Below are positions 37,808-54,618 of a stretch of DNA of 64,000 bases, one piece after another. Position 1 is the stretch's first letter, and each line of letters begins with the position of its first letter. This DNA comes from Marinicauda algicola (GTDB taxonomy: Bacteria; Pseudomonadota; Alphaproteobacteria; Caulobacterales; Maricaulaceae): positions 1 to 64,000 of the forward strand of contig NZ_CP071057.1 of NCBI RefSeq assembly GCF_017161425.1, in the 5' to 3' direction. Under the pieces are notes generated by a model. The model did not search any database. It saw only the letters and a program-made list of their open reading frames with translations, and was not told where the DNA came from. The translations under genes were made by a program, and so were the position numbers.

Positions 37808-38365
37808 ATGGTCGGTTCAGTTGCACTTATACTGGTCACAATGGCGCTGGCAGGCTCAGATGTGGGGAACCCGGCGCCCTTTGAGGTTCAGGGCTTTCGC
37901 TCGCAGATCGACGTGGAGATCGCCGCGCCCGTCGAGACCGTCTTTGACGCGGCGACCGGCGACGTAACCGGATGGTGGGACCACAGCTTTGCCGAGGACC
38001 CGGCCGAGATGGTGATCGAGCCCCTCTTCGGCGGACGGTTCTATGAGCGCTTCTCGCAGGACGGCGCTGACGGCGCGCTCCATGCCACCGTCATCTATGT
38101 CAATGCCCCCTCGCAGCTTCGCCTGGATGGGCCGCTTGGCCTGAGCGGGCGGGCCGTCGACCTCGTGACCACCTGGACCCTGCAGCCGAGCGAGGCCGGC
38201 ACACTGTTCACGGTCGACCTCTCGATGGCCGGAGAGATAGACCCGCCGCTCGCCGAGGCGGTGACGCGGGTCTGGGATCATTTCATTCGCGAACGATTGA
38301 AGCCCTATGTCGAGAGCGGGTGCCATCTTGCGCCGGATGAACCCTGCGAGGTCTTCGTCGAATAG
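37808..38365 (+). CDS. SRPBCC/START-like domain protein, probably exported
   Basis: A 185-residue protein with an N-terminal hydrophobic stretch (MVGSVALILVTMALAGSDVG) and a SRPBCC-fold domain: IDVEIAAPVETVFDAATGDV, GWWDHSFAEDPAEMVIEPLF, GGRFYERF and a last helix RVWDHFIRERLKPYVESG. ATG 37808 is chosen since it starts the signal-like segment; an in-frame ATG at 37745 would add an improbable arginine-rich leader. The ligand is unknown. The 277 bases before it contain no gene I can support. Confidence 0.7.
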   Translation: MVGSVALILVTMALAGSDVGNPAPFEVQGFRSQIDVEIAAPVETVFDAATGDVTGWWDHSFAEDPAEMVIEPLFGGRFYERFSQDGADGALHATVIYVNAPSQLRLDGPLGLSGRAVDLVTTWTLQPSEAGTLFTVDLSMAGEIDPPLAEAVTRVWDHFIRERLKPYVESGCHLAPDEPCEVFVE

Positions 38366-38381
38366 ACATTTGGAGGCGGGA

Positions 38382-39166
38382 ATGGCGGATATTCCATCCG
38401 CCTACTCTCGTTTCGAGCGTCACGATCTCTCAAGCAGAAGCATCCGCAGAGCCCTCCCGGCGAAACCCAACGCCTACTGGAACCTCATCTCCTTCGGTAA
38501 ACAGCTCGGTTACGACAAGAAGCGCGCTGGCGAAGGCTACTGGGTGGCGTGGTTCCGTACCAAGGCGGGCGGATTCAGGCAGAAGCGTATCGGCACCGCG
38601 AATGACACAGCGACTGCGACGGGATCGAGGTGCTGTCCCACGAACAGGCTATCGACGCTGCCAAATGCTGGTTTGGGGAGCCCACGCAGTCCTCCATAGC
38701 AGTCGAGCGCCGCGCGCCTGGCCCTCGGCGGGAATTGATCTACTGTCCCGTCGGTGAGGAGTTAACCGTCGCGCATGCGCTCGAGGATATGATCGAGTGG
38801 AAGTGGCTCACCAATGCGGGCAGCGATGTCGAGGTCTCGATCAGCCTCGTCAACCACCATGTCCTGCGCCGGATCGGTACTTTGTCTGCGAATGACGTCG
38901 CGGGCAGAACGGCCAGAAGGCTCATCCAGGATATCGGCGAAACCCCTCCTAGAACCGAGGTTAACGAAGCCAAGCGGCCTATAGTGTTCCTTAGCTCCGA
39001 CGAGTTACGCAAGCGAAGTAAAACTGCAAATGCCGTCTCGAGCCTGATGCGTCAAGCGCTCTATCTTGCCTGGGAAGAAGGACTCAGGTCACAATATTAC
39101 CGGGCAGAATTCAACATCTATGTGATGGTCTGCGCCAAGACTGGTATCTGCTCCCAAGAAATATGA
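38382..39166 (+). pseudogene. tyrosine integrase, N-terminal fragment
   Basis: The N-terminal two-thirds of a phage-type tyrosine integrase. It opens with the arm-type region YWNLISFGKQLGYDKKRAGE, YWVAWFRTKAGGFRQKRIGT and, after a frame slip near 38620, DGIEVLSHEQAIDAAKCWF. Next come the core-binding segments IGETPPRTEVNEAKRP and RKRSKTANAVSSLMRQALYL. The reading frame then ends after unrelated residues, and no catalytic domain (R, HxxR, LGH, Tyr) follows. So it is broken twice, by a slip and by a 3' truncation near 39085. It marks the left part of the accessory region. Confidence 0.7.
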
Positions 39167-39173
39167 CCTCGCG

Positions 39174-41153
39174 GTGTGTTGCTATCCGGAGTATTATCAC
39201 GCCGTCCCGCAAGTGAAGGGTGAAGGCTTGGCGGAGTTCAGCGAGCAAAGCGCGCTGCGTGAGGGGCTGTCGCGCTTTCGGTGGTCCGAGGGCGTAGTGG
39301 GCTGGGCGGCTGGGCTCGGTCTTCCCGGGCTTGTCATCCTGGCGGCCTTGTTGATTCCCCCGATACCCGGCTCCCTTTCAGCTCAGCGTGTGCCCCCGCA
39401 CACCATCGGCTGGATCGAGGCGAGCTGGGATCTCTTCCCGCGCCACCACACCAGCAGAGAATCGCTCCGCGCGCCACGGAATCTGCCCGCTAGTGGAGAT
39501 CGAAACGTTCAGCTATTCTTTTTCTGGCAAGACAGCGATACGGGTCCACCACCCGCCCGCTTGTTTCTTCCCGCCGTCTCCGGCGCCAGTGAACTCTACG
39601 TGAACGGGGCTCCGATATTCGCCGAGCCGATAGCCTCCGCCCCGCATATCGCGCACGCCGGCTCGCGCGCCGAACTCTGGTCACTTCCGCCCGAGTTCTT
39701 CGGTCCGGGCCGCGACCGGATCGATCTCGTGCTCTCGCAAAGCTCGGGCCGGGCCTCGGCGGGGGGCATCTTCATCGGGTCCGGAGACATCTTGTCACCT
39801 TTGATGGATCGCTATCAGGGCCGGAGCCTTTTCGCCCGGCACGCACTGATGCTTCTCTCCATTATAGCAGGCCTTCTGGCGCTGACCTACGCGGCCCTGG
39901 CGGGCAAGTCGCGGACTCACGTTCCAGCCGGGTTCGCCGCGCTCGCCTTGAGCGCACGAACCGCATGGTCGGGCCCTGACGCACAGGAAATGGCCGGCGC
40001 GCTCTGGTGGGTCGCCGACAAGGCGATGCTCGGCCTCGTTCTGCTGCTACTTGCCCGAAGCCTGCAGCCACGAGCCGCGATCCGTAGTCCCGCTCTCGGT
40101 GCGGCCGCCCTTTTCGCGCTCGCCCTTGTACTCGCCCCCCGGCAAGTCGAAATTGCCTGGTGGCTGTCCGCCCTTGCCTTGATGACTTGCGCGATCCCAG
40201 CCGGCATCACTGTCGCGAGGAGCATTCCCGGCCCGCTCGAACTCGCGACGCAGCCGGCTGCCGGGGTGCAGGCCGTCATGCTCGGGGTTCTCCTGGGGGT
40301 GATTTCGGCCGCTCTGCTGGCGGGTCTCGGGCTGACCCCCTCGTGGGCGACACTGGTGAGCGAGACAGGATACGCGATCGGCGCGCTCGCGCTCTGCGTA
40401 ATCCTCGCGGGATATGCGGGCGCCAAGTGCGTACACCAGATCGCGGCGATCGTTCGCACCCAGTTCGATCTCTCCAGGCTCGTCCGGATGCAGCGCGAGG
40501 AGCTGGATGCCAAATCCATCGCGCTCCAGAACGAGATGCGCCAGCGCGCCGTGCTGGAAGAGCGCCAGCGGCTCGTGCGTGACATGCACGACGGCGTCGG
40601 CGGTCAGCTCATGTCGCTTCTCGCCCGGGTCCGCGCCGGCCGGGTCGGCCCCGACCGTATCGAGCCGGAGCTGGTGACCAGCCTCAATGATCTCCGCCTG
40701 ATCGTGGACTCCCTCGACAATGCGGGAGACACGCTTGACACCGCTCTGGCGACCTTCCGCGGGCGCGCGCGCGCCCAGCTCGAAGCCGCCGGGATCGCCC
40801 TGCACTGGAACCAGCCCGGCGTTCTTCAGATGGTCGTCGACAATCCGCGCAAGATTCTCCACATCTACCGCTTCCTGCAGGAGGCGGTGACGAACGTCAT
40901 CCGGCACGCACGGGCGAGCCGGCTCGATGTCGAGGTGCGGTGCGAGAACGGCGAACTGATCTTCACGCTCCGCGACGACGGCATAGGCTATCGGCCGCCT
41001 GCTCAAGGCGAGGGGCGTGCCGGCAAGGGAGTCTCCAACATGGAGCATCGTGCCCGTCAGCTGGACGGAACGTTGCGGATAACGGCTCTCCAGCCAGGGG
41101 CGGGAACGGAGGTCGAACTCGCCATACCTTCACCCGCAATCCTGCCGTCCTGA
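39174..41153 (+). CDS. 7TM-type sensor histidine kinase, HisKA_3/NarX class
   Basis: A sensor kinase of up to 659 residues. After a first membrane segment near residue 45-65 comes a periplasmic beta-rich domain (WIEASWDLFPRHHTSRESLR to IFIGSGDIL) like 7TMR-DISM extracellular domains. About seven helices (residues 220-420) and a coiled linker follow. The phosphorylated His is in RQRLVRDMHDGVGGQLMSLL, and the HATPase region has FLQEAVTNVIRHARAS and LRDDGIGY. The GTG at 39174 is uncertain; TTG 39228 after AAGGGTGAAGG is also possible. It converges with the response-regulator operon six bases away. Confidence 0.85.
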   Translation: MCCYPEYYHAVPQVKGEGLAEFSEQSALREGLSRFRWSEGVVGWAAGLGLPGLVILAALLIPPIPGSLSAQRVPPHTIGWIEASWDLFPRHHTSRESLRAPRNLPASGDRNVQLFFFWQDSDTGPPPARLFLPAVSGASELYVNGAPIFAEPIASAPHIAHAGSRAELWSLPPEFFGPGRDRIDLVLSQSSGRASAGGIFIGSGDILSPLMDRYQGRSLFARHALMLLSIIAGLLALTYAALAGKSRTHVPAGFAALALSARTAWSGPDAQEMAGALWWVADKAMLGLVLLLLARSLQPRAAIRSPALGAAALFALALVLAPRQVEIAWWLSALALMTCAIPAGITVARSIPGPLELATQPAAGVQAVMLGVLLGVISAALLAGLGLTPSWATLVSETGYAIGALALCVILAGYAGAKCVHQIAAIVRTQFDLSRLVRMQREELDAKSIALQNEMRQRAVLEERQRLVRDMHDGVGGQLMSLLARVRAGRVGPDRIEPELVTSLNDLRLIVDSLDNAGDTLDTALATFRGRARAQLEAAGIALHWNQPGVLQMVVDNPRKILHIYRFLQEAVTNVIRHARASRLDVEVRCENGELIFTLRDDGIGYRPPAQGEGRAGKGVSNMEHRARQLDGTLRITALQPGAGTEVELAIPSPAILPS

Positions 41154-41159
41154 TGGAGC

Positions 41160-41828
41160 TCATTCGTCTGAGGCTATCAGGCCGAGCGACCGCGCCTCGA
41201 AGATGGCCTCCGCGCGAGAATGAACACTGAGCTTGCGGTAGATCGCCTTAACGTGATCGCCGACCGTATGGGAGGAAATGGAAAGAACCTCCCCGGTTTC
41301 GCGGTAGGAGAGACCCCGGGAGAAGAGCCGCAAGATCTCCGCTTCGCGCGTGGTCAGCGGACTGGCGGGCCCCGCCGAGCCGGCGGAGCTGGAGGCCGGC
41401 TCCCGCTTGATGAGTTCCAACAGGTAGGTCGCGGCCTGCGGGCTTATCGGAGACTCCCCGGCGAGAGTCATCTCGATGGAGCGGCGCAGCTGGTCGGCCG
41501 GCGTGTCCTTCAGGAGATAGCCGTCCGCGCCCGCATGAAGGGCGACGAGCACGCTCTGGCGGTCGCCCAGCACGGTCAGGATCAGGGTGCGCGCGTCGCA
41601 TTGACGCTTGAGTTCGGCCACGAAGTCGAGCCCGCTGCCATCGGGCAGCTGCAGATCGACCAGCGCGAGGTCGCACGCTTGCGTGCGGCACGCCGCGACC
41701 GCTTCGGCCACCGTGCCGGCGCTGAACGCCACTTCCAGTCCGCTCGCATGATTGACGATGGTCGCGAGATACCCGCGAAGGTCCGGGTCATCCTCCAGGA
41801 TTGCGATCCGGCGGTTCGATCCGGCCAT
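41160..41828 (-). CDS. NarL/LuxR-type response regulator
   Basis: A 222-residue response regulator. The receiver domain (residues 5-120) has acidic EDDPD, the phospho-acceptor Asp58 in LALVDLQLPDGSG and a conserved Lys in GYLLKDTPADQL. The C-terminal LuxR helix-turn-helix (residues 155-215) reads PLTTREAEILRLFSRGLSYR, then ISSHTVGDHVKAIYRKLSVH. It is the likely partner of the kinase that converges on it. It starts three bases after the stop of the upstream uncharacterised gene, so kinase output and these exported proteins are probably linked. Confidence 0.88.
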   Translation of the reverse strand: MAGSNRRIAILEDDPDLRGYLATIVNHASGLEVAFSAGTVAEAVAACRTQACDLALVDLQLPDGSGLDFVAELKRQCDARTLILTVLGDRQSVLVALHAGADGYLLKDTPADQLRRSIEMTLAGESPISPQAATYLLELIKREPASSSAGSAGPASPLTTREAEILRLFSRGLSYRETGEVLSISSHTVGDHVKAIYRKLSVHSRAEAIFEARSLGLIASDE

Positions 41829-41831
41829 GCC

Positions 41832-43013
41832 TCACCTCGTCCAGCAGGTGGAATAGGGCTGACCCATGATGTCGACCCAGACTCGGCGGGCCTCGTCACC
41901 AAGCCCGCCGAATGCGGACAACCGTCCGGGGCGCAGCCCGTCGTGATAACGGGCCGTGCGCCACCCCTCGCCGAACTGGCCGGAACAATAGGCATCAGCT
42001 TCTGAAATCGTGCGGAAGCTGTCGCCGCGCACGTCCGGCGTCGTGGCGATGACCCCGCCGCTCCAGTCGAATTCATAGGTGCTTCGCGCCTCTGCGCCCG
42101 CCGGGACCGGTGAGCCAAGATCGAAGAAGCAGAGCAAGGGTTGCGCCGTCTCGCACGGCGTGTCTCCGAGATAGGGGTCGCAGATATAATGGTCACCCTG
42201 CCACTCATCGCAGCCCAGCGCGCTGGCGCCCGTGCTCGATCGGCGCCAGTTGCTATTGAGGACCAGCGAGACACCCTTTTCCCGGGGCGGCTCTTCGCAC
42301 ACCGCGACACCGATGAAATCCACCGCCGTATCATCACCGATCCAGACATCGAGAATCTGAACGCCATCGCCGCTGCGCACATAATCCAGGATCGTATTGA
42401 GATCCCCATCGAGATGGAATGCGCGGGGTTCCTCATGTGTCGCGGACCGATAGCGTTGCAGCCTCAGTTCTTCGAACCGGGCCGAGTGGAGATCACCCTC
42501 GATGGTCCAGGTTCCTTCCTCGGCCATCGCCGTCAGCCGGTGCATCGAAACGGTCGGAGACCGCTCGCCCGCCCTGAACGGCGAGACATCCCCGATGCTG
42601 AGGGTGTCGGTGCCGTTGCCTGAAACCGGACGCAGGCGCGTGACGAAGACCCCGCTCGAGATATTGCTCGGCAGTTCGAAATAGTCTGAAAGAATGCGGT
42701 CGGCCTGAACCTGATCATAAGGGCCGAAGGCGACCGAACGCGTGCGTTCGTTTTCGAGCCTGGGATGCAAGCGTCCGAACTCGCGGCCCTCGATCGAGAA
42801 TCCGTCCTCCACGCCGCGCACGAAGATTTGCTTGGTCTCGGCGCGGTGGCACGGGAAATCCTGCAGGATGGCCATGCCAGGCTGAGCAGGACCGTCCGGC
42901 TCCGCGTCCGCGGAGACGGGTCGCAGGGCGAGCGGTAACGCAAAGCCGAGCGCAACAAGCGCCAGGCACAGGCCGATGAAGCTCCCCCAGGCAAACACGC
43001 GCAGGCGCGCCAT
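41832..43013 (-). CDS. uncharacterised membrane-anchored protein with Cys-rich C-terminal domain
   Basis: A 393-residue protein I cannot assign to a named family. It starts with one membrane segment (FIGLCLALVALGFALPLALR), so it is anchored or secreted. A middle domain of about 200 residues follows, and then a C-terminal region with CDPYLGDTPCETAQPLLCF, GGVIATTPDVRGDSFRTISE and AYCSGQFGEGWRTARYHDG, ending in CW. The same C-terminal pattern occurs in the next gene upstream (43072-43622). Six or more cysteines suggest disulfides outside the cytoplasm. ATG 43013 is chosen at the start of the hydrophobic segment. It is in one operon with the response regulator. Confidence 0.7.
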   Translation of the reverse strand: MARLRVFAWGSFIGLCLALVALGFALPLALRPVSADAEPDGPAQPGMAILQDFPCHRAETKQIFVRGVEDGFSIEGREFGRLHPRLENERTRSVAFGPYDQVQADRILSDYFELPSNISSGVFVTRLRPVSGNGTDTLSIGDVSPFRAGERSPTVSMHRLTAMAEEGTWTIEGDLHSARFEELRLQRYRSATHEEPRAFHLDGDLNTILDYVRSGDGVQILDVWIGDDTAVDFIGVAVCEEPPREKGVSLVLNSNWRRSSTGASALGCDEWQGDHYICDPYLGDTPCETAQPLLCFFDLGSPVPAGAEARSTYEFDWSGGVIATTPDVRGDSFRTISEADAYCSGQFGEGWRTARYHDGLRPGRLSAFGGLGDEARRVWVDIMGQPYSTCWTR

Positions 43014-43071
43014 TGCCGGTCCCCTGTCCTGCTCCTCCCGCGGAAACTCTACTTCAGGCTCCCGGGAATGG

Positions 43072-43622
43072 CTATTCTGGCGTTGTTTCGCCGTCATCGA
43101 CGGGTACCCAGCAGGTCGCGCCGCCGGATACGTCCACCCAGGCGCGCTGCTCGTCGTCACCGAAAAAGCCGTAGGCGCGGAAATTGACCGCGCGGCCCGA
43201 CTCGATGGAGAGGGCCTGCCAGCCCGGCCCGAACTGCTGCTCGCAATAGCCGTGCGCGTCCTGCGCCGTTGCGAATGCGTTTCCCGTCACCTCCGGGGTC
43301 GTCGCGATCACACCGCCCAGCCAGATCGTGTTCTCACCCCCGGGGGCAGGGAGCGCGGAGCGGGCACTTCCATGTCGTTGAAGCAGATCAGGGGCCTCGC
43401 CTGCGAGCACGCCGTGTCGCCCCGGTAGGGATCGCAGCGTTCGCCGTCCCCGCCTTCGCACCCGATCGTTGACACGGCCGTGACCGGATCGCGGTGCTTG
43501 TAGGCGAGCGTGGTGCCGCGCTCGGCGGAGGGCTGCGGCTGCCGGGTTTCGCTATGAACGGAACCCGGCGACATCGCAAGCACCAGGCCCGCCACGCAGA
43601 GTACCGGCATGGTGAATTTCAT
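43072..43622 (-). CDS. secreted paralogue of the Cys-rich C-terminal domain (frameshifted)
   Basis: A shorter exported relative of the protein encoded downstream. It has a signal peptide (MKFTMPVLCVAGLVLAMSPG), then CDPYRGDTACSQARPLICF, GGVIATTPEVTGNAFATAQD, YCEQQFGPGWQAL and a closing CW. The frame slips once in a CCCCCGGGGG run near 43340; one added G joins MEVPAPRSLPPG to GENTIWLGG. A homopolymer sequencing error is likely, but a natural or phase-variable slip cannot be excluded. It lies 58 bases upstream of its paralogue on the same strand, so it is the first gene of that operon. Confidence 0.65.
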
Positions 43623-43826
43623 CGTCATCCAGTCTCACTCGGTCCGCTCGATCCTGCTGGCTAGAGGCCCGCAGCACCACCCCCAACATTCGGGATATCA
43701 ACCGCGACCGACATTCCGTCCGTAGTCCCTTTACTCCCCCATACTCGGGATACGCGGCCGGACTTTCTTCGACCAGACTTGCCTTCGCGAGGGGTGGGCT
43801 TGCCCCGCTTTAATTCGGAGGAAGAA

Positions 43827-45503
43827 ATGAGACTTCTAAAAGCTGCTGCGGCCGCGCTGACATGCTTGTCGGCAATGCCGATCGCAAGTGCCGCCATCGC
43901 GCAGGAATGCACACCGCCGCCGGACGACATGCTGTTCTGGTTCGCACAGGATGGGCAGATGTCCGAACTCATCGGCAACCGGACCGCGAACGGCGTTGGA
44001 TCGCCGGGCCAGCCGGCCGATCCCTGGTCGAATGCGTCCGCGGCGCTCAGCGTCACGCCGGGCAACTCCGTGGAGTTCGCCTCGGACGCCGGAATGCAGG
44101 TCGGCGCCGGCGATTTCACGGTCGATGCGTGGATAAGGACCAGTCAGAGACGCGGCGTCCTGCCGATCGTCGACAAGCGCAACCGCGATACCGCCGGCTA
44201 CATGTTCTATGTCCATGACGGCCGGATCAGCATGCAGACCCACCTTCCCAACGATTCATACAATGTCGAATCCCAAACCGGCGTTGCGAACGGGGAGTGG
44301 CGTCACGTCGCGGCAACGATTCATCGGCGCGAACGCGCCGTACGCCTCTATGTCGATGGCCAACTCGTTCATACCGGCAGTCACATGGTTCCGGCCGGCG
44401 CGAGCCTCGACAACAACGTTCCACTCAGAATTGGCCGGGGCGGCTATGATGAGCGGGGCAGCTTCGATGTCGACGAGGTGGAGCTGTTCGACCGAGCCCT
44501 GTCGCCCAACGAGATCGCGGCTCTCGCGCGCGCACCGAAGTGCAAACGCGCCGAGCCCCCTCGAGGCTACGACCTTACCATCAGCAAGGAGCCGGTGGAT
44601 GCCGAGGACGGCTGGCAGATCGGCACCCAGCAGTCGTTCGAGATCGTCGTCCAGAACCAAAGCGGATCGGCCTCCTTCCCGAACGGCGCGATCGTGGTGC
44701 AGGACAATGTTCCGGCCAATTTCTCGCCTTATTCGGTGTCCTGGCCGCAAGGAAGCGGCTGGACCTGCCAGGGCGGCGGATTCCCCTGCACCTACGAAGC
44801 CGTCTCGCTCGGCGCCGGCGATACCCTGCCGCCGCTGACGGTGACCGCCACGGTCGGAGCCGGGGACGTGGTCTCCAATTGCGCGAGCGTGCGGGCAAGG
44901 CTCGAGGGCGAAACCAACCGCCGCAACAACGAGGATTGCGCCCGCGTGGTGTTGCACGATCGCCCCGTCGTTCCGCCGGTGTCCGATCCGTGCTGCCCGC
45001 CGGGAGGTGGAGCCGAGGTCGCGTCAGTCTTCCAGCCGATCGGAACCGGAGACGCCGATGACCCCCGGCTCTATCGTTACATGCCTTCGCTCAATCCAGG
45101 ATACGGCCAGATCATGCAGGCCTATGCCGACTACGTCATCTTGGCGAACGGCGGCATTTCCAGCATGCGAGAGACATATTCGCTGAAGAGTGGCGGCAAT
45201 ACGATCCAGACCGGGATCATCACATACCAGAACGGAAGCAGTTCGGCGTCCGGGACCTTCTTCACCATTCCGCTTCAGGTGAACACCACCTATCGCATCG
45301 AGCGCACGGTCACCTTCCATGGCGCGAACGGTCAACTCGTCGAGTTCCATGACCGCGAAGAATGCGGTCCTCGCGGGATAGAATTCGTGCTGACCATGAC
45401 CTACTTCCGCACCGCCGGGGAAGACCAGCCCAGCGAGAGAGCTGTCTTGAGACTCTCCTACGACGGTGTCACGCGCGATGTGCCCTTCCAACCGAGGCAC
45501 TGA
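43827..45503 (+). CDS. secreted LamG-domain protein with DUF11-like repeat
   Basis: A 558-residue secreted protein. A signal peptide (MRLLKAAAAALTCLSAMPIA) precedes a LamG/concanavalin-like domain (residues about 60-230). This contains FTVDAWIRTSQRRGVLPIVD, WRHVAATIHRRERAVRLYVD and the closing VDEVELFDRALSPNEIAALA. A DUF11-type Ig-like repeat follows (YDLTISKEPVDAEDG, QSFEIVVQNQSGSASFPNG), then a proline/cysteine linker and a C-terminal beta domain of unknown type. Such layouts are typical of surface or matrix adhesins. The ATG follows CGGAGGA. A clear terminator follows, and the next gene also carries LamG. Confidence 0.78.
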   Translation: MRLLKAAAAALTCLSAMPIASAAIAQECTPPPDDMLFWFAQDGQMSELIGNRTANGVGSPGQPADPWSNASAALSVTPGNSVEFASDAGMQVGAGDFTVDAWIRTSQRRGVLPIVDKRNRDTAGYMFYVHDGRISMQTHLPNDSYNVESQTGVANGEWRHVAATIHRRERAVRLYVDGQLVHTGSHMVPAGASLDNNVPLRIGRGGYDERGSFDVDEVELFDRALSPNEIAALARAPKCKRAEPPRGYDLTISKEPVDAEDGWQIGTQQSFEIVVQNQSGSASFPNGAIVVQDNVPANFSPYSVSWPQGSGWTCQGGGFPCTYEAVSLGAGDTLPPLTVTATVGAGDVVSNCASVRARLEGETNRRNNEDCARVVLHDRPVVPPVSDPCCPPGGGAEVASVFQPIGTGDADDPRLYRYMPSLNPGYGQIMQAYADYVILANGGISSMRETYSLKSGGNTIQTGIITYQNGSSSASGTFFTIPLQVNTTYRIERTVTFHGANGQLVEFHDREECGPRGIEFVLTMTYFRTAGEDQPSERAVLRLSYDGVTRDVPFQPRH

Positions 45504-45560: not shown

Positions 45561-45682
45561 TTCGACGGTGCTATCCGTCCCGGCTGCACTCCCCAATTCA
45601 TGGGATCGGCGCGTCTCTCGATCAGGGCCATGCTAACGCGATCGGCGCACTTGCGCCGGCCGCAGGACGAAGGACGATCGCC

Positions 45683-47902
45683 ATGCACATGCTCATCAGC
45701 GCTGCTGCCGCGTGCTTATTGGTCTCAACGCCCTGTGCTTCGGCACAGGTCCTGTTCGATCTCGACACGCTCGACGGGACGAATGGCTTTCGCATAGATG
45801 GCCAGGCGGCCGGCACCCGGTTCTCGACCGGCCATTCCGGCATCGGCGATTTCAATTGCGACGGGCGCGACGACTGGGCCGTTTCCTCCCTCGATCACGG
45901 CGTCCGCGTCTTCTTCGGCCAGGCCGCACCCTTTTCCCACCCGCTGCCTGCGGACGGCTTCGCACTGGCGCCCGGTTTCGTCATCGAGGGCGTCGCAACG
46001 GGCAATGTCGTCAGTGGAGCGAACAGCGGCGAGAACGTTGTGGGGCTCGGCGACCTGAATGCCGACGGCTGCGACGACTTCGCCATCGGCCTGCCCGCCC
46101 ATGACAGCCGCAATGGCGCTGTTCTGGTCGTGCTCGGTGCGCCGTCCACACCCGCATCTCTGAACGCCATGTCAGCGCTGGGCGAACGCACCATTCTCGT
46201 GACCCCCGCGCTTAAAAACCAGAGCTGGTTTGGCATGGCCGTCGGGGCGGCCGATTTCGATGCGAACGGAACCCCGGACCTTCTCGTCGGTGCGTTCTAC
46301 GACCATGTCTGGGACTGGGGCCGCGGCTATATCGTGCATGGCGATCTTCTGGTTCCGGCCCAATCGGGTCAGGGATACGAGCCGATCCGGGAGGTCGGCG
46401 CTTCGGGCGGGCCGGCCACGCTCCAGCTGGTTGGTGAATCTTCGCACAACGAACATCTTGGCTGGAGCGTAGCCGGTGTCGGCGACGTCGATGGTGTGCC
46501 GGGTGACGAGGTCGTGTTCGGCGCATACGGAGCAGACAACATCCAGTCCGGCGTGCGCCATTATAACGGCGCCGCCTATCTGGTCTTCTCTCAGCCCTCG
46601 CCTGCCACGGGCGTACTGCGGGGAAGCCATCTCGCGGACGCCGGCATCAGGATGGTTCCACCCGCACTCCCGCAAGGGCTTACGGTCAGTGCGGCGGCCC
46701 ATGCCGGCTGGGCCGCCGCGGGCGCCGGCGATATCGATCAGGATGGTTATAAGGACTTCATTGTCACTGCCTTCCGCCTGTCCACGGGGACGGCCCCGAG
46801 CGAACTCTATCGCGGTGCCGCCTTCCTGATCTATGGCGGGCCTTATCTGCGCGCCCTCTCCGGCGGGTTGGGCGCAGGCGACCCAAGCTACGACCTTCTG
46901 CTCGAAACCGGCGGAGCTCAGGGGGTGCCCTACAGGGGAACGACGATCCTCGGCTTTGCCTCCCAGGTGCTCGGTGCGGCCGCCGCCGCTGACCCGGCAA
47001 GTGGACGGCTGCTGCTGGGAACGCTCCATCCGGGCGCCACTGGCGGCGATGGCGGCGGAGCCTGGCTGGTCAATCCGCACACCTGTCCCGCTTCCCAGGT
47101 GGACCTGACCGCATCTCTGCCCGATGGTTGCGCCATCTACTACCATGCGCCGGGCTCCGGGCAGAACCTGTCCTTTCTAGGCGACGTGATGGGCGCAGAC
47201 GGATTATCGGAACCGGCAATCGGATTTCAGACGACGGGCAGTTATGCCGGAGCGCTGTACGTCTTGCGCGGCGAGCCCGCGATAGACTGTGCAGCCTTGC
47301 CCCCCGGGGCGGTGTTTTACTACCGGCCCGAAACCGGTCTGCCCGACCATGACCGGATCGGCGGGTCGATCGCCGCGTCTGGCTCGGGTACGCTCGTCAG
47401 CGGCCGCTATGGCACCGAAGCCATCGCGGTGAATCACACATTCGCTTTCCCCCAGGCCGATGTGGACTTCGCCGATGGGCAGGATTTCACCGTGGAGGTC
47501 GTGGCCCGCTGGCAAAGCCAGTGGCGCGAACGCAATATCGTTTCAAAGTGGACGAACCCGCGCGGCTACCGGCTCTCGACCGGCAGCGATCAGGCCGTGG
47601 CCACGCTTCGATCAAACGGTCAGGTCCGCATCCAGAACGCCGCAACGCCCGATCCTGAGGGCTGGTACTCGCTTCATGCGGTGGCCGATTACGGCGCAAA
47701 CGCGCTGACACTCTACAATCATGGTGCCGCGGTCGCGACGAGCAATCCAGCCCTCGACCTCGGCGTCGTACTCGGCTCCTTCAACGTGCCCACGCCATTA
47801 CACATTCATGCCGGAATGACGATCGATCATGTTGTCGTGTACGACCGCGCATTGACGCCGGAAGAAATCGCCGGGCTCCACGATCTCCCGAAATGCAATT
47901 AG
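45683..47902 (+). CDS. secreted FG-GAP repeat protein with C-terminal LamG domain
   Basis: A 739-residue secreted protein. A signal peptide (MHMLISAAAACLLVSTPCAS) precedes integrin-alpha-like FG-GAP repeats with calcium-binding loops: GIGDFNCDGRDDWAVSSLDH, GLGDLNADGCDDFAIGLPAH, GAADFDANGTPDLLVGAFYD, GVGDVDGVPGDEVVFGAYG and GAGDIDQDGYKDFIVTAF. The last 190 residues form a LamG-type domain closing with HVVVYDRALTPEEIAGLHDL, like the end of the preceding LamG protein. It probably folds as a beta-propeller for adhesion or glycan binding at the surface. Calcium dependence is inferred from the repeats. Confidence 0.85.
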   Translation: MHMLISAAAACLLVSTPCASAQVLFDLDTLDGTNGFRIDGQAAGTRFSTGHSGIGDFNCDGRDDWAVSSLDHGVRVFFGQAAPFSHPLPADGFALAPGFVIEGVATGNVVSGANSGENVVGLGDLNADGCDDFAIGLPAHDSRNGAVLVVLGAPSTPASLNAMSALGERTILVTPALKNQSWFGMAVGAADFDANGTPDLLVGAFYDHVWDWGRGYIVHGDLLVPAQSGQGYEPIREVGASGGPATLQLVGESSHNEHLGWSVAGVGDVDGVPGDEVVFGAYGADNIQSGVRHYNGAAYLVFSQPSPATGVLRGSHLADAGIRMVPPALPQGLTVSAAAHAGWAAAGAGDIDQDGYKDFIVTAFRLSTGTAPSELYRGAAFLIYGGPYLRALSGGLGAGDPSYDLLLETGGAQGVPYRGTTILGFASQVLGAAAAADPASGRLLLGTLHPGATGGDGGGAWLVNPHTCPASQVDLTASLPDGCAIYYHAPGSGQNLSFLGDVMGADGLSEPAIGFQTTGSYAGALYVLRGEPAIDCAALPPGAVFYYRPETGLPDHDRIGGSIAASGSGTLVSGRYGTEAIAVNHTFAFPQADVDFADGQDFTVEVVARWQSQWRERNIVSKWTNPRGYRLSTGSDQAVATLRSNGQVRIQNAATPDPEGWYSLHAVADYGANALTLYNHGAAVATSNPALDLGVVLGSFNVPTPLHIHAGMTIDHVVVYDRALTPEEIAGLHDLPKCN

Positions 47903-54541: not shown

Positions 54542-54618
54542 TGGTGTCCCCGACAGGATTCGAACCTGTGGCCCCGGGATTAGGAATCCCGTGCTCTATC
54601 CTGCTGAGCTACGGGGAC
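54542..54618 (-). tRNA. tRNA-Arg (anticodon CCT)
   Basis: A 77-base cloverleaf on the minus strand: acceptor GTCCCCG pairing with CGGGGAC, D-arm GCTCAGCAGGATAGAGC, anticodon arm GGGAT-TCCTAAT-CCC with CCT at 34-36, T-arm with GTTCGAATC and an encoded CCA end. All stems pair. Its 3' end faces the recombinase-bearing island. Confidence 0.95.

What the first reader, a model, noticed from the sequence alone, without database searches (positions are those of the whole stretch)
39174..43622. Signalling unit tied to two related uncharacterised exported proteins
Two paralogues share a C-terminal pattern (CDPYxGDTxC, PLxCF, GGVIATTPxVxG, YCxxQFGxGW, closing CW) of no named family that I know. They form an operon with a NarL-type regulator whose likely kinase, with a large extracellular sensor domain, converges on it. 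The exported proteins may be ligands, sensors or outputs of this two-component system.
Basis: partly seen in the sequence, partly recalled or inferred. Interest (0 to 1): 0.6.

Follow-up and report, generated by a model that had tools for sequence, protein, structure and literature searches.

The report
Self-regulated sensing cassette with exported partner
A small set of neighbouring bacterial genes (a membrane sensor, its gene switch, and exported proteins carrying a previously unnamed cysteine-rich domain) recurs as a unit in related bacteria and appears to control itself and nearby surface proteins through a shared DNA signal, which points to a new kind of helper protein in bacterial sensing.

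Summary
Two exported paralogues share a real, unnamed C-terminal domain beside a NarL-type regulator and a convergent kinase; the short paralogue is frameshifted here. The link is not a local accident: [short]-long-regulator, convergent with the kinase, recurs in 17 of 22 domain-bearing genomes found by profile search. Kinase, regulator and long-protein distances co-vary.

New: (1) the long protein is a jelly-roll-like domain plus the new domain behind one N-terminal hydrophobic segment; each domain alone can also neighbour two-component genes. (2) The domain has three predicted disulfides and two apparent circular permutants, and reaches Deinococcus, Streptomyces (fused to a ricin lectin) and an archaeal bin. 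(3) A dyad, YCCC-N8-GGGR, sits upstream of operon and kinase: 17 of 38 matches fall in 3.3% of the sequence searched; most other spacings are not enriched. In several loci, including this window, it also precedes flanking exported proteins.

Best reading: an autoregulated three-component system whose long protein is an extracytoplasmic partner of the kinase, with exported proteins as output. The operator is well supported across loci, less so in the window alone; the partner role is inferred. New variant of a known kind.

The parts
39174..41153 (+). Sensor histidine kinase: N-terminal TM, about 150-residue extracytoplasmic part with a YVNG motif, six further TMs by hydropathy, HisKA_3 (weak) and HATPase_c
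   Evidence: Pfam, hydropathy, alignment with relatives
41160..41828 (-). NarL-type response regulator (receiver + LuxR/GerE DNA-binding domain)
   Evidence: Pfam; NCBIfam MadR, NarL and NarP models match below cut-off
41832..43160 (-). Long paralogue: exported or membrane-anchored extracytoplasmic protein (likely start ATG 43013 or 43097; hydrophobic segment at residues 61-79 of the 442-aa frame)
42261..42887 (-). N-domain of the long paralogue, predicted jelly-roll-like beta-sandwich
   Evidence: profile match, AlphaFold model, VIA-align Z up to 5.9 with CBM-like and other jelly rolls
41835..42281 (-). Shared C-terminal domain (six cysteines) of the long paralogue
   Evidence: A2 alignment, profile E 1.6e-57, no Pfam/NCBIfam/PHROG/PDB-sequence family
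43072..43628 (-). Short exported paralogue: signal peptide (by eye) plus the shared domain, broken by a frameshift; pieces 43308-43628 and 43072-43461
43779..45503 (+). Divergent exported protein 1 (likely ATG 43827): LamG + DUF11 + C-terminal CCxP domain shared with neighbours of other modules
   Evidence: Pfam; neighbour BLAST; profile A10
45683..47902 (+). Exported protein 2 (ORF from 45362, signal-peptide-like ATG at 45683): FG-GAP repeats + LamG
   Evidence: Pfam, start
43680..43695 (+). Operator-like dyad CCCCCAACATTCGGGA in the divergent intergenic region
43735..43750 (+). Operator-like dyad TCCCCCATACTCGGGA in the divergent intergenic region
45590..45605 (+). Operator-like dyad TCCCCAATTCATGGGA, about 85 bp upstream of exported protein 2

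Best explanation
This is an autoregulated three-component signalling cassette. A kinase with an extracytoplasmic domain and several membrane helices signals to a NarL-type regulator. The long protein, held at the outer face of the inner membrane with a jelly-roll-like domain and a disulfide-rich domain, is a partner that carries or relays the extracellular cue to the kinase. The phosphorylated regulator binds a 16-bp inverted repeat (YCCC-N8-GGGR). It thereby controls its own operon (short-long-regulator), the kinase gene, and in several loci flanking exported, adhesin-like proteins. Shown: module conservation, coupled divergence, the shared dyad at these promoters. Inferred: that the regulator is what binds the dyad, that the long protein stays anchored and touches the kinase, and that the ligand is a glycan or surface polymer.
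For: Module in 17 of 22 domain-bearing genomes; in 18 of 18 module loci the regulator follows the domain protein on the same strand and converges with the kinase. In the family, 12 of the 15 domain genomes also carry this kinase's sensor part, which occurs in 14 of 137 genomes. Distance matrices of kinase, regulator and long protein from 13 modules correlate at 0.83-0.88, 0 of 5000 permutations as high, and the trees share main splits. Dyad: with operon and kinase promoters only, 17 of 38 matches fall in 8.4 of 251 kb, in 10 of 14 loci; reversed and direct-repeat controls give 1 hit each inside, spacings 4-6 and 11-12 give 0-1. A PWM from ten sites of five genomes scores at least 9 in 11 of 21 promoter windows of ten other loci and in 0 of 83 other gene starts of those loci. 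Genome-wide, 3 of 3 exact matches to YCCCATNNNNATGGGR in G034 and 3 of 4 in G023 lie at the module. N-domain without the shared domain 99 bp from a kinase, with a NarL-type regulator near (L094); shared domain without the N-domain in one module (G081). Precedents: QseG (PMC6075780, abstract), VraT (PMC9380581, abstract), RgsP/RgsM (PMC6107284, passages).
Against: No protein contact, phosphotransfer or DNA binding can be tested here. The kinase's sensor part matches no 7TMR-DISM profile. The domain occurs without this kind of two-component genes in 4 of 22 genomes and in extra copies of others, so it is not dedicated to this system. Anchoring is not certain: all 17 N-termini checked have a hydrophobic segment, but 5, the window's among them, have an AxA in the stretch after it, as a cleaved signal might. 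In the window the looser dyad is no commoner than chance (10 matches, expected 10.8); only its placing, 3 of 10 in the two module intergenic regions, is telling. The clade PWM does not find the window's sites (p 0.37) nor any in G129 (p 0.53), and the stricter pattern has no match in G000; in G009, G080, G082 and G229 its matches lie away from the module, and five of the module-less relatives have two each. Spacing 9 is also enriched (8 of 28) and spacing 7 weakly (3 of 16). The dyad was first seen in a scan that included all these loci, so the held-out test is not fully blind.
Confidence: 0.6

Rival explanations
1. Output only: long and short are envelope or surface proteins made when the system is active, and take no part in sensing. 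The kinase senses its cue alone.
For: The operon shares its operator-like dyad with flanking exported genes. The domain is found in exported-looking proteins with no such two-component genes nearby. No short gene is seen in 10 of 18 modules, and it is broken in the window.
Against: The long gene is coupled to the regulator, often with a 4-nt overlap, while the more variable exported neighbours are not. The long protein is present in 17 of 18 module loci, counting one truncated at a contig start. Its divergence tracks kinase and regulator.
Confidence: 0.27
2. The short exported paralogue is a diffusible protein signal, or a competitor of the long protein's homologous domain, so that the cassette measures its own secretion or cell density.
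For: Short and long share the domain, and the short gene precedes the long one in 8 of 18 module loci, one of them broken in the window; the operon has its own operator-like site.
Against: In 10 of 18 module loci no short gene is seen, one of these at a contig start, so it cannot be the general ligand. Processing motifs were not searched for.
Confidence: 0.08
3. The domain is an enzyme or structural module and its link with the two-component genes is only joint transfer of neighbours.
For: Patchy distribution; the module tree mixes the two families. Fold of the C-terminal domain untested.
Against: The shared dyad upstream of operon and kinase suggests common regulation, not mere proximity. Order and strand are the same in 18 of 18 loci.
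Confidence: 0.05

Closest known systems
QseE-QseG-QseF of E. coli (PMC6075780, abstract read)
   Same: An envelope protein encoded in the operon with a response regulator; there it binds the kinase's periplasmic loop and activates it.
   Different: QseG is an outer-membrane lipoprotein; here the partner has an N-terminal hydrophobic segment and two other domains. QseF activates sigma-54 promoters, here the regulator is NarL-type. The kinase gene here is convergent, not in the operon. Sequence relation was not tested.
VraTSR of S. aureus (PMC9380581, abstract read)
   Same: Three-component system with a membrane protein whose C-terminal domain is extracellular and which is needed for full activity. 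That VraSR is NarL-type is recalled.
   Different: Sequence relation of VraT to the long protein was not tested; a Gram-positive host without a periplasm.
RgsP-RgsM of Sinorhizobium (PMC6107284, passages read)
   Same: Alphaproteobacterial 7TMR receptor with a periplasmic 7TMR-DISMED2 domain that interacts with an inner-membrane-anchored periplasmic partner.
   Different: RgsP signals through PAS, GGDEF and EAL domains, and RgsM has a LytM domain; no Pfam family at E up to 1 is found in the window's long protein.
NarL-type operator (7-2-7 inverted heptamers; recalled)
   Same: 16-bp inverted repeat with the same geometry upstream of target genes.
   Different: Half-site here is YCCC-type, not the TACYYMT heptamer (recalled).

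Membership tests
NarL/HPK7-type two-component system | Kinase with HisKA_3 dimerisation domain and HATPase_c | tested here: inconclusive
   HATPase_c above cut-off; HisKA_3 E 4e-4 but 21.3 bits against a cut-off of 24; His invariant in ERQRL.RD.HDG.GG in the three aligned kinases
NarL/HPK7-type two-component system | Receiver domain plus GerE (LuxR) helix-turn-helix | tested here: met
   Response_reg 69.4 bits and GerE 50.3 bits, both above cut-off
7TMR-DISM receptors | N-terminal signal/TM, extracytoplasmic domain, seven TMs, cytoplasmic signalling module | tested here: inconclusive
   Hydropathy: 1 + 6 segments in the window kinase, 1 + 7 in two relatives, fewer in the other eight; AlphaFold model poor, pLDDT 55
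7TMR-DISM receptors | Match to Pfam 7TMR-DISM_7TM or DISMED profiles | tested here: not met
   No such match at E up to 1 among 9 sensor parts
Three-component system with accessory envelope protein (QseG, VraT type) | Accessory envelope protein encoded with the system across genomes | tested here: met
   18 of 18 module loci of 17 genomes
Three-component system with accessory envelope protein (QseG, VraT type) | Accessory protein contacts the kinase and alters its activity | not testable with these tools
   Needs two-hybrid, pull-down or phosphorylation assays
CBM-like jelly roll (N-domain of long protein) | Jelly-roll beta-sandwich clearly matching a CBM family | tested here: inconclusive
   VIA-align Z at most 5.9, CBMs mixed with capsids and other jelly rolls; only chance-level Pfam hits
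Any named Pfam/NCBIfam/PHROG family (C-terminal domain) | Profile match above cut-off | tested here: not met
   10 members: only scattered single-member hits, best E 0.043
C-type-lectin-like fold (C-terminal domain) | Structural match to a C-type lectin domain | not tested
   Suspected from motif spacing by eye only; the fold search barely covered this part

The most novel reading that the evidence does not exclude
The C-terminal domain is a new, widely scattered extracellular recognition domain, held by three disulfides and able to be circularly permuted. In this cassette the secreted short copy and the membrane-held long copy compete for the same surface ligand or for each other, so that the cell reads, and by feedback sets, the state of its own surface-protein layer.
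Probability: 0.12. Interest if true: 0.8.

Novelty: new variant of a known kind. Interest (0 to 1): 0.6.

Why it matters
It gives a testable cassette in which an unnamed exported domain, a kinase, its regulator and a candidate operator can all be read from sequence. It would add a new class of accessory protein to three-component signalling. It also defines an extracellular domain that none of the Pfam, NCBIfam and PHROG copies searched names, with a predicted disulfide map and apparent circular permutants in a bacterium and an archaeal bin. The dyad turns guilt by association into a regulon hypothesis that one gel shift can test.

Tried and rejected
Scan of genome contigs with the long protein alone: no relatives. 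Fold comparison: Foldseek gave nothing at E <= 0.001, and the VIA rows span mainly residues 11-208, so the C-terminal domain's fold is untested. A C-type-lectin-like fold was suspected from the motif spacing; not tested. The kinase model (pLDDT 55) was not interpreted. PDB sequence search with the kinase sensor part: best E 0.33, a GH2 sugar-binding protein over the YVNG region, taken as chance; N-domain best 0.29. Viral contigs and phages: no relative. Three weak hits (G003, G052, G033; E 0.002-0.008) cover only N-terminal stretches and were dropped. Predicted folding of the divergent intergenic region is ordinary (z -0.12). The window-specific 18-base pattern has no further match with fewer than 3 mismatches in G000; the five 3-mismatch hits are like the control's six.

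Left out of counts: the distant loci L084-L088, L124 and L125 are not in the 22 genomes; none of them matches the kinase or N-domain profiles. Trees used 13 of 18 modules (dropped: G034 broken kinase, G136 truncated long, G089 partial kinase, G081 no N-domain, second G368 copy). One search used 14 of 18 module loci (dropped: both G368 copies, near-identical to G265; G229, near-identical to G281; G089 at a contig end), and for G136 only the kinase promoter. One search used ten loci, leaving out the training genomes. Neighbour promoters were added after seeing sites, so the stricter is the one to quote. The threshold of 9 was chosen after seeing scores. Nine dyad sites away from modules were inspected: six lie in open frames, one of them a doubtful 74-codon frame, and three between genes; of those three one (G136:C1:5686) lies just upstream of two exported-looking genes. 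The other off-module sites were not inspected.
Full report
What is there. The window is bases 1-64000 of a single 3.42 Mb contig. At 39174-41153 lies a kinase on the + strand. Convergent with it, on the - strand and in order of transcription, lie a short exported paralogue (43628-43072), a long paralogue (to 41832) and a NarL-type regulator (41828-41160). The short paralogue is interrupted: two frames meet at the C/G run 43337-43346. Nothing in Pfam matches either paralogue at E up to 1. Divergent from the short gene is an exported protein with LamG and DUF11 domains, then an FG-GAP/LamG protein.

The link to two-component genes is conserved. Profile A2 of the shared domain matched 15 of 137 genomes of the family, 14 of 398 of the order (6 of them new) and 1 of 398 of a phylum sample, the window's own. 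A longer profile (A6) matched 3 of 385 genomes of a class sample: the window's own, one new for the domain (G679) and one with the N-domain only (G565). Of the resulting 22 domain-bearing genomes, 17 carry the module. Four show no regulator or kinase of this type in the stretch held (G133, G326, G378, G679; G326 sits on a 7.2 kb contig), and one ends at a contig edge (G134). In all 18 module loci (two in G368) the regulator directly follows the domain protein on the same strand, with gaps of -157 to +12 nt, and converges with the kinase; in G034 the kinase is broken into frames and in G089 it is cut by the contig end. A second, upstream copy of the domain as a short gene is seen in 8 of 18 loci, broken in the window. 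Further copies without this kind of two-component genes occur in G034, G023, G082 and G081 (for the G034 and G023 copies only the kinase profile was run over six frames, and the regulator profile later: no match).

Co-occurrence and co-divergence. The sensor part of this kinase is found in 14 of 137 family genomes, 12 of them among the 15 with the domain; the other two, G078 and G142, are weak matches in tandem kinase-regulator pairs without the long protein. These profiles were built from module members, so presence is partly by construction; the absences are not. Distances among 13 modules correlate for kinase/regulator (0.88), kinase/long (0.83) and regulator/long (0.85), with 0 of 5000 permutations as high, and the trees share the same main groups while mixing the two families. 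That fits descent or transfer as a unit; it does not by itself prove contact.

Anatomy of the long protein. It has a single N-terminal hydrophobic segment; all 17 N-termini checked from module loci have one, and in 5, the window's included, an AxA follows, so cleavage is not excluded. Then come an N-domain and the shared domain. The AlphaFold model (10 sequences, pLDDT 71.4) gives a beta-sandwich for the N-domain and a more confident C-terminal part. VIA-align places residues about 22-207 with jelly rolls, carbohydrate-binding modules among them, at Z no higher than 5.9, which is a common arrangement and not a family assignment. Both domains can neighbour two-component genes on their own. G565 has an N-domain protein without the shared domain, 99 bp from a kinase whose cytoplasmic half matches our kinase profile, with a NarL-type regulator 616 bp beyond it; the order and strands differ from the module. 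In G081 the module protein has the shared domain without the N-domain. In Thiothrix (L086) the shared-domain gene lies 171 bp from, and divergent to, a different kind of kinase (Reg_prop, HATPase_c) followed by an AraC-type response regulator. The N-domain also stands alone in G090.

The shared domain. No family in Pfam, NCBIfam, PHROGs or PDB sequences beyond scattered chance-level hits. Relatives outside the order: Candidatus Electrothrix, a betaproteobacterial bin, Thiothrix, an Aenigmatarchaeota bin and Paraliomyxa, and, on plasmids, Deinococcus and a Streptomyces protein that also has a ricin-type lectin domain. Bin assignments rest on the record titles. Six cysteines recur; their losses are paired. 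C1 and C2 are lost together in L019, L020, L054, L055, one L062 copy and L063, and again in L124 and L125, where C3 and C6 are lost as well; C4 and C5 stay. Several of these are close relatives, so the independent losses are few. This predicts disulfides C1-C2, C3-C6 and C4-C5. Exceptions: the L016 short protein has Tyr at C4, and the other L062 copy lacks only C1. In L087 and L088 the second half precedes the first, as in a circular permutation.

A shared operator-like dyad. Scanning 34 upstream regions for inverted repeats gave CCCAT-N4-ATGGG in 7, against at most 2 for any repeat in 30 shuffles. The best sites are CCCCATA-N2-TATGGGG-like, the 7-2-7 geometry recalled for NarL. Exact genome-wide matches to YCCCATNNNNATGGGR: 3 in G034, all at the module; 4 in G023, 3 at the module; 5 in G138, 2 at the module; 1 in G134, at the module; 3 in G136, 1 at the module; the reversed control gave none in these five. 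The other 31 genomes had 0 to 3. None of the matches in G009, G080, G082 and G229, which carry the module, lies at it; G000 has none; and five of the module-less genomes have two each, so it is the placing and not the number that is telling. A PWM from ten such sites, applied to ten other module loci, scored at least 9 in 11 of 21 module promoter windows and in 0 of 83 other gene starts in the same loci. Other clades change both half-sites together, for example CCCCTTA..AAGGGG and CCACAT..ATGTGG. In the general form YCCC-N8-GGGR, 17 of 38 matches lie in the operon and kinase promoter windows, 8.4 of 251 kb, in 10 of 14 loci. Spacings 4, 5, 11 and 12 give none inside, 6 and 10 give 1 and 2, 7 gives 3 (p 0.015) and 9 gives 8 (p 3e-6), the last perhaps because C and G runs are often longer than three; reversed and direct-repeat forms give 1 each. 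In the window the number of matches, 10, is what chance gives (10.8), and three of them overlap at one place; but 3 of 10 fall in the two module intergenic regions, two between the short gene and exported protein 1 and one about 85 bp before exported protein 2. The window's sites are not found by the clade PWM (p 0.37), and those of G129 are weak (p 0.53).

Likely outputs. Exported neighbours recur: a C-terminal CCxP domain is shared by neighbours in the window, L016, L017, L073 and L074. Among 61 relatives its profile is found in 4, three of them at the module (those three are profile members). In G265 the dyad lies between the long gene and a PKD/autotransporter protein; in G034, G023, G138 and G136 it precedes other exported-looking genes.

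Mechanism. The simplest account: a cue outside the inner membrane is bound by the long protein or by the kinase with it; the kinase phosphorylates the regulator; the regulator binds the dyad and raises or lowers its own operon, the kinase and exported surface proteins. Conservation, tight coupling and dyad are shown. Binding, contact, sign of control and ligand are inferred. [quoted passage not shown]

Comparison with print. Closest systems are QseEGF, VraTSR and RgsP/RgsM. Paper searches that showed no report of this module or domain: by motif strings, by subject (listings only, apart from the three papers named). The library is partial, so this is not proof of absence.

Noticed in passing
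43337-43346 (short paralogue): A C/G run marks a frameshift that splits the short paralogue; three relatives hold it in one frame. Real mutation or assembly error is open.
   Followed up: partly
L087 6717-8723; L088 7782-8447: The two halves of the shared domain are in reversed order, as in a circular permutation; most of the cysteines are kept.
   Followed up: partly
L125 3407-4345 (Streptomyces plasmid), L124 3752-5914 (Deinococcus plasmid): Shared domain with only two of six cysteines; in Streptomyces fused to a ricin-type lectin domain and preceded by a GerE-type regulator gene.
   Followed up: partly
L086 3242-8471 (Thiothrix): Shared-domain gene divergent to a Reg_prop kinase gene followed by an AraC-type response regulator: a second, unrelated kind of two-component neighbour.
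   Followed up: partly
L124 178-807: A further match to the shared-domain profile near the first one on the Deinococcus plasmid.
   Followed up: no
44976-45500: C-terminal CCxP domain of exported protein 1, shared with exported neighbours of other modules and also found in G036; the protein's Pfam matches lie elsewhere in it.
   Followed up: partly
38307-39166: Two overlapping frames just upstream of the kinase; the second has no Pfam match and no relative in 30 other genomes. They look like a decayed gene, perhaps an integrase (my guess).
   Followed up: partly
G368 C10 and C12 (L078, L079): Two apparently identical copies of the module and its flank on two contigs: recent duplication or assembly duplicate.
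   Followed up: no
G136:C1:5686 (L146): Dyad site upstream of two exported-looking genes away from the module: a possible second target.
   Followed up: no
54542-54618: tRNA-Arg (cct) on the - strand.
   Followed up: no
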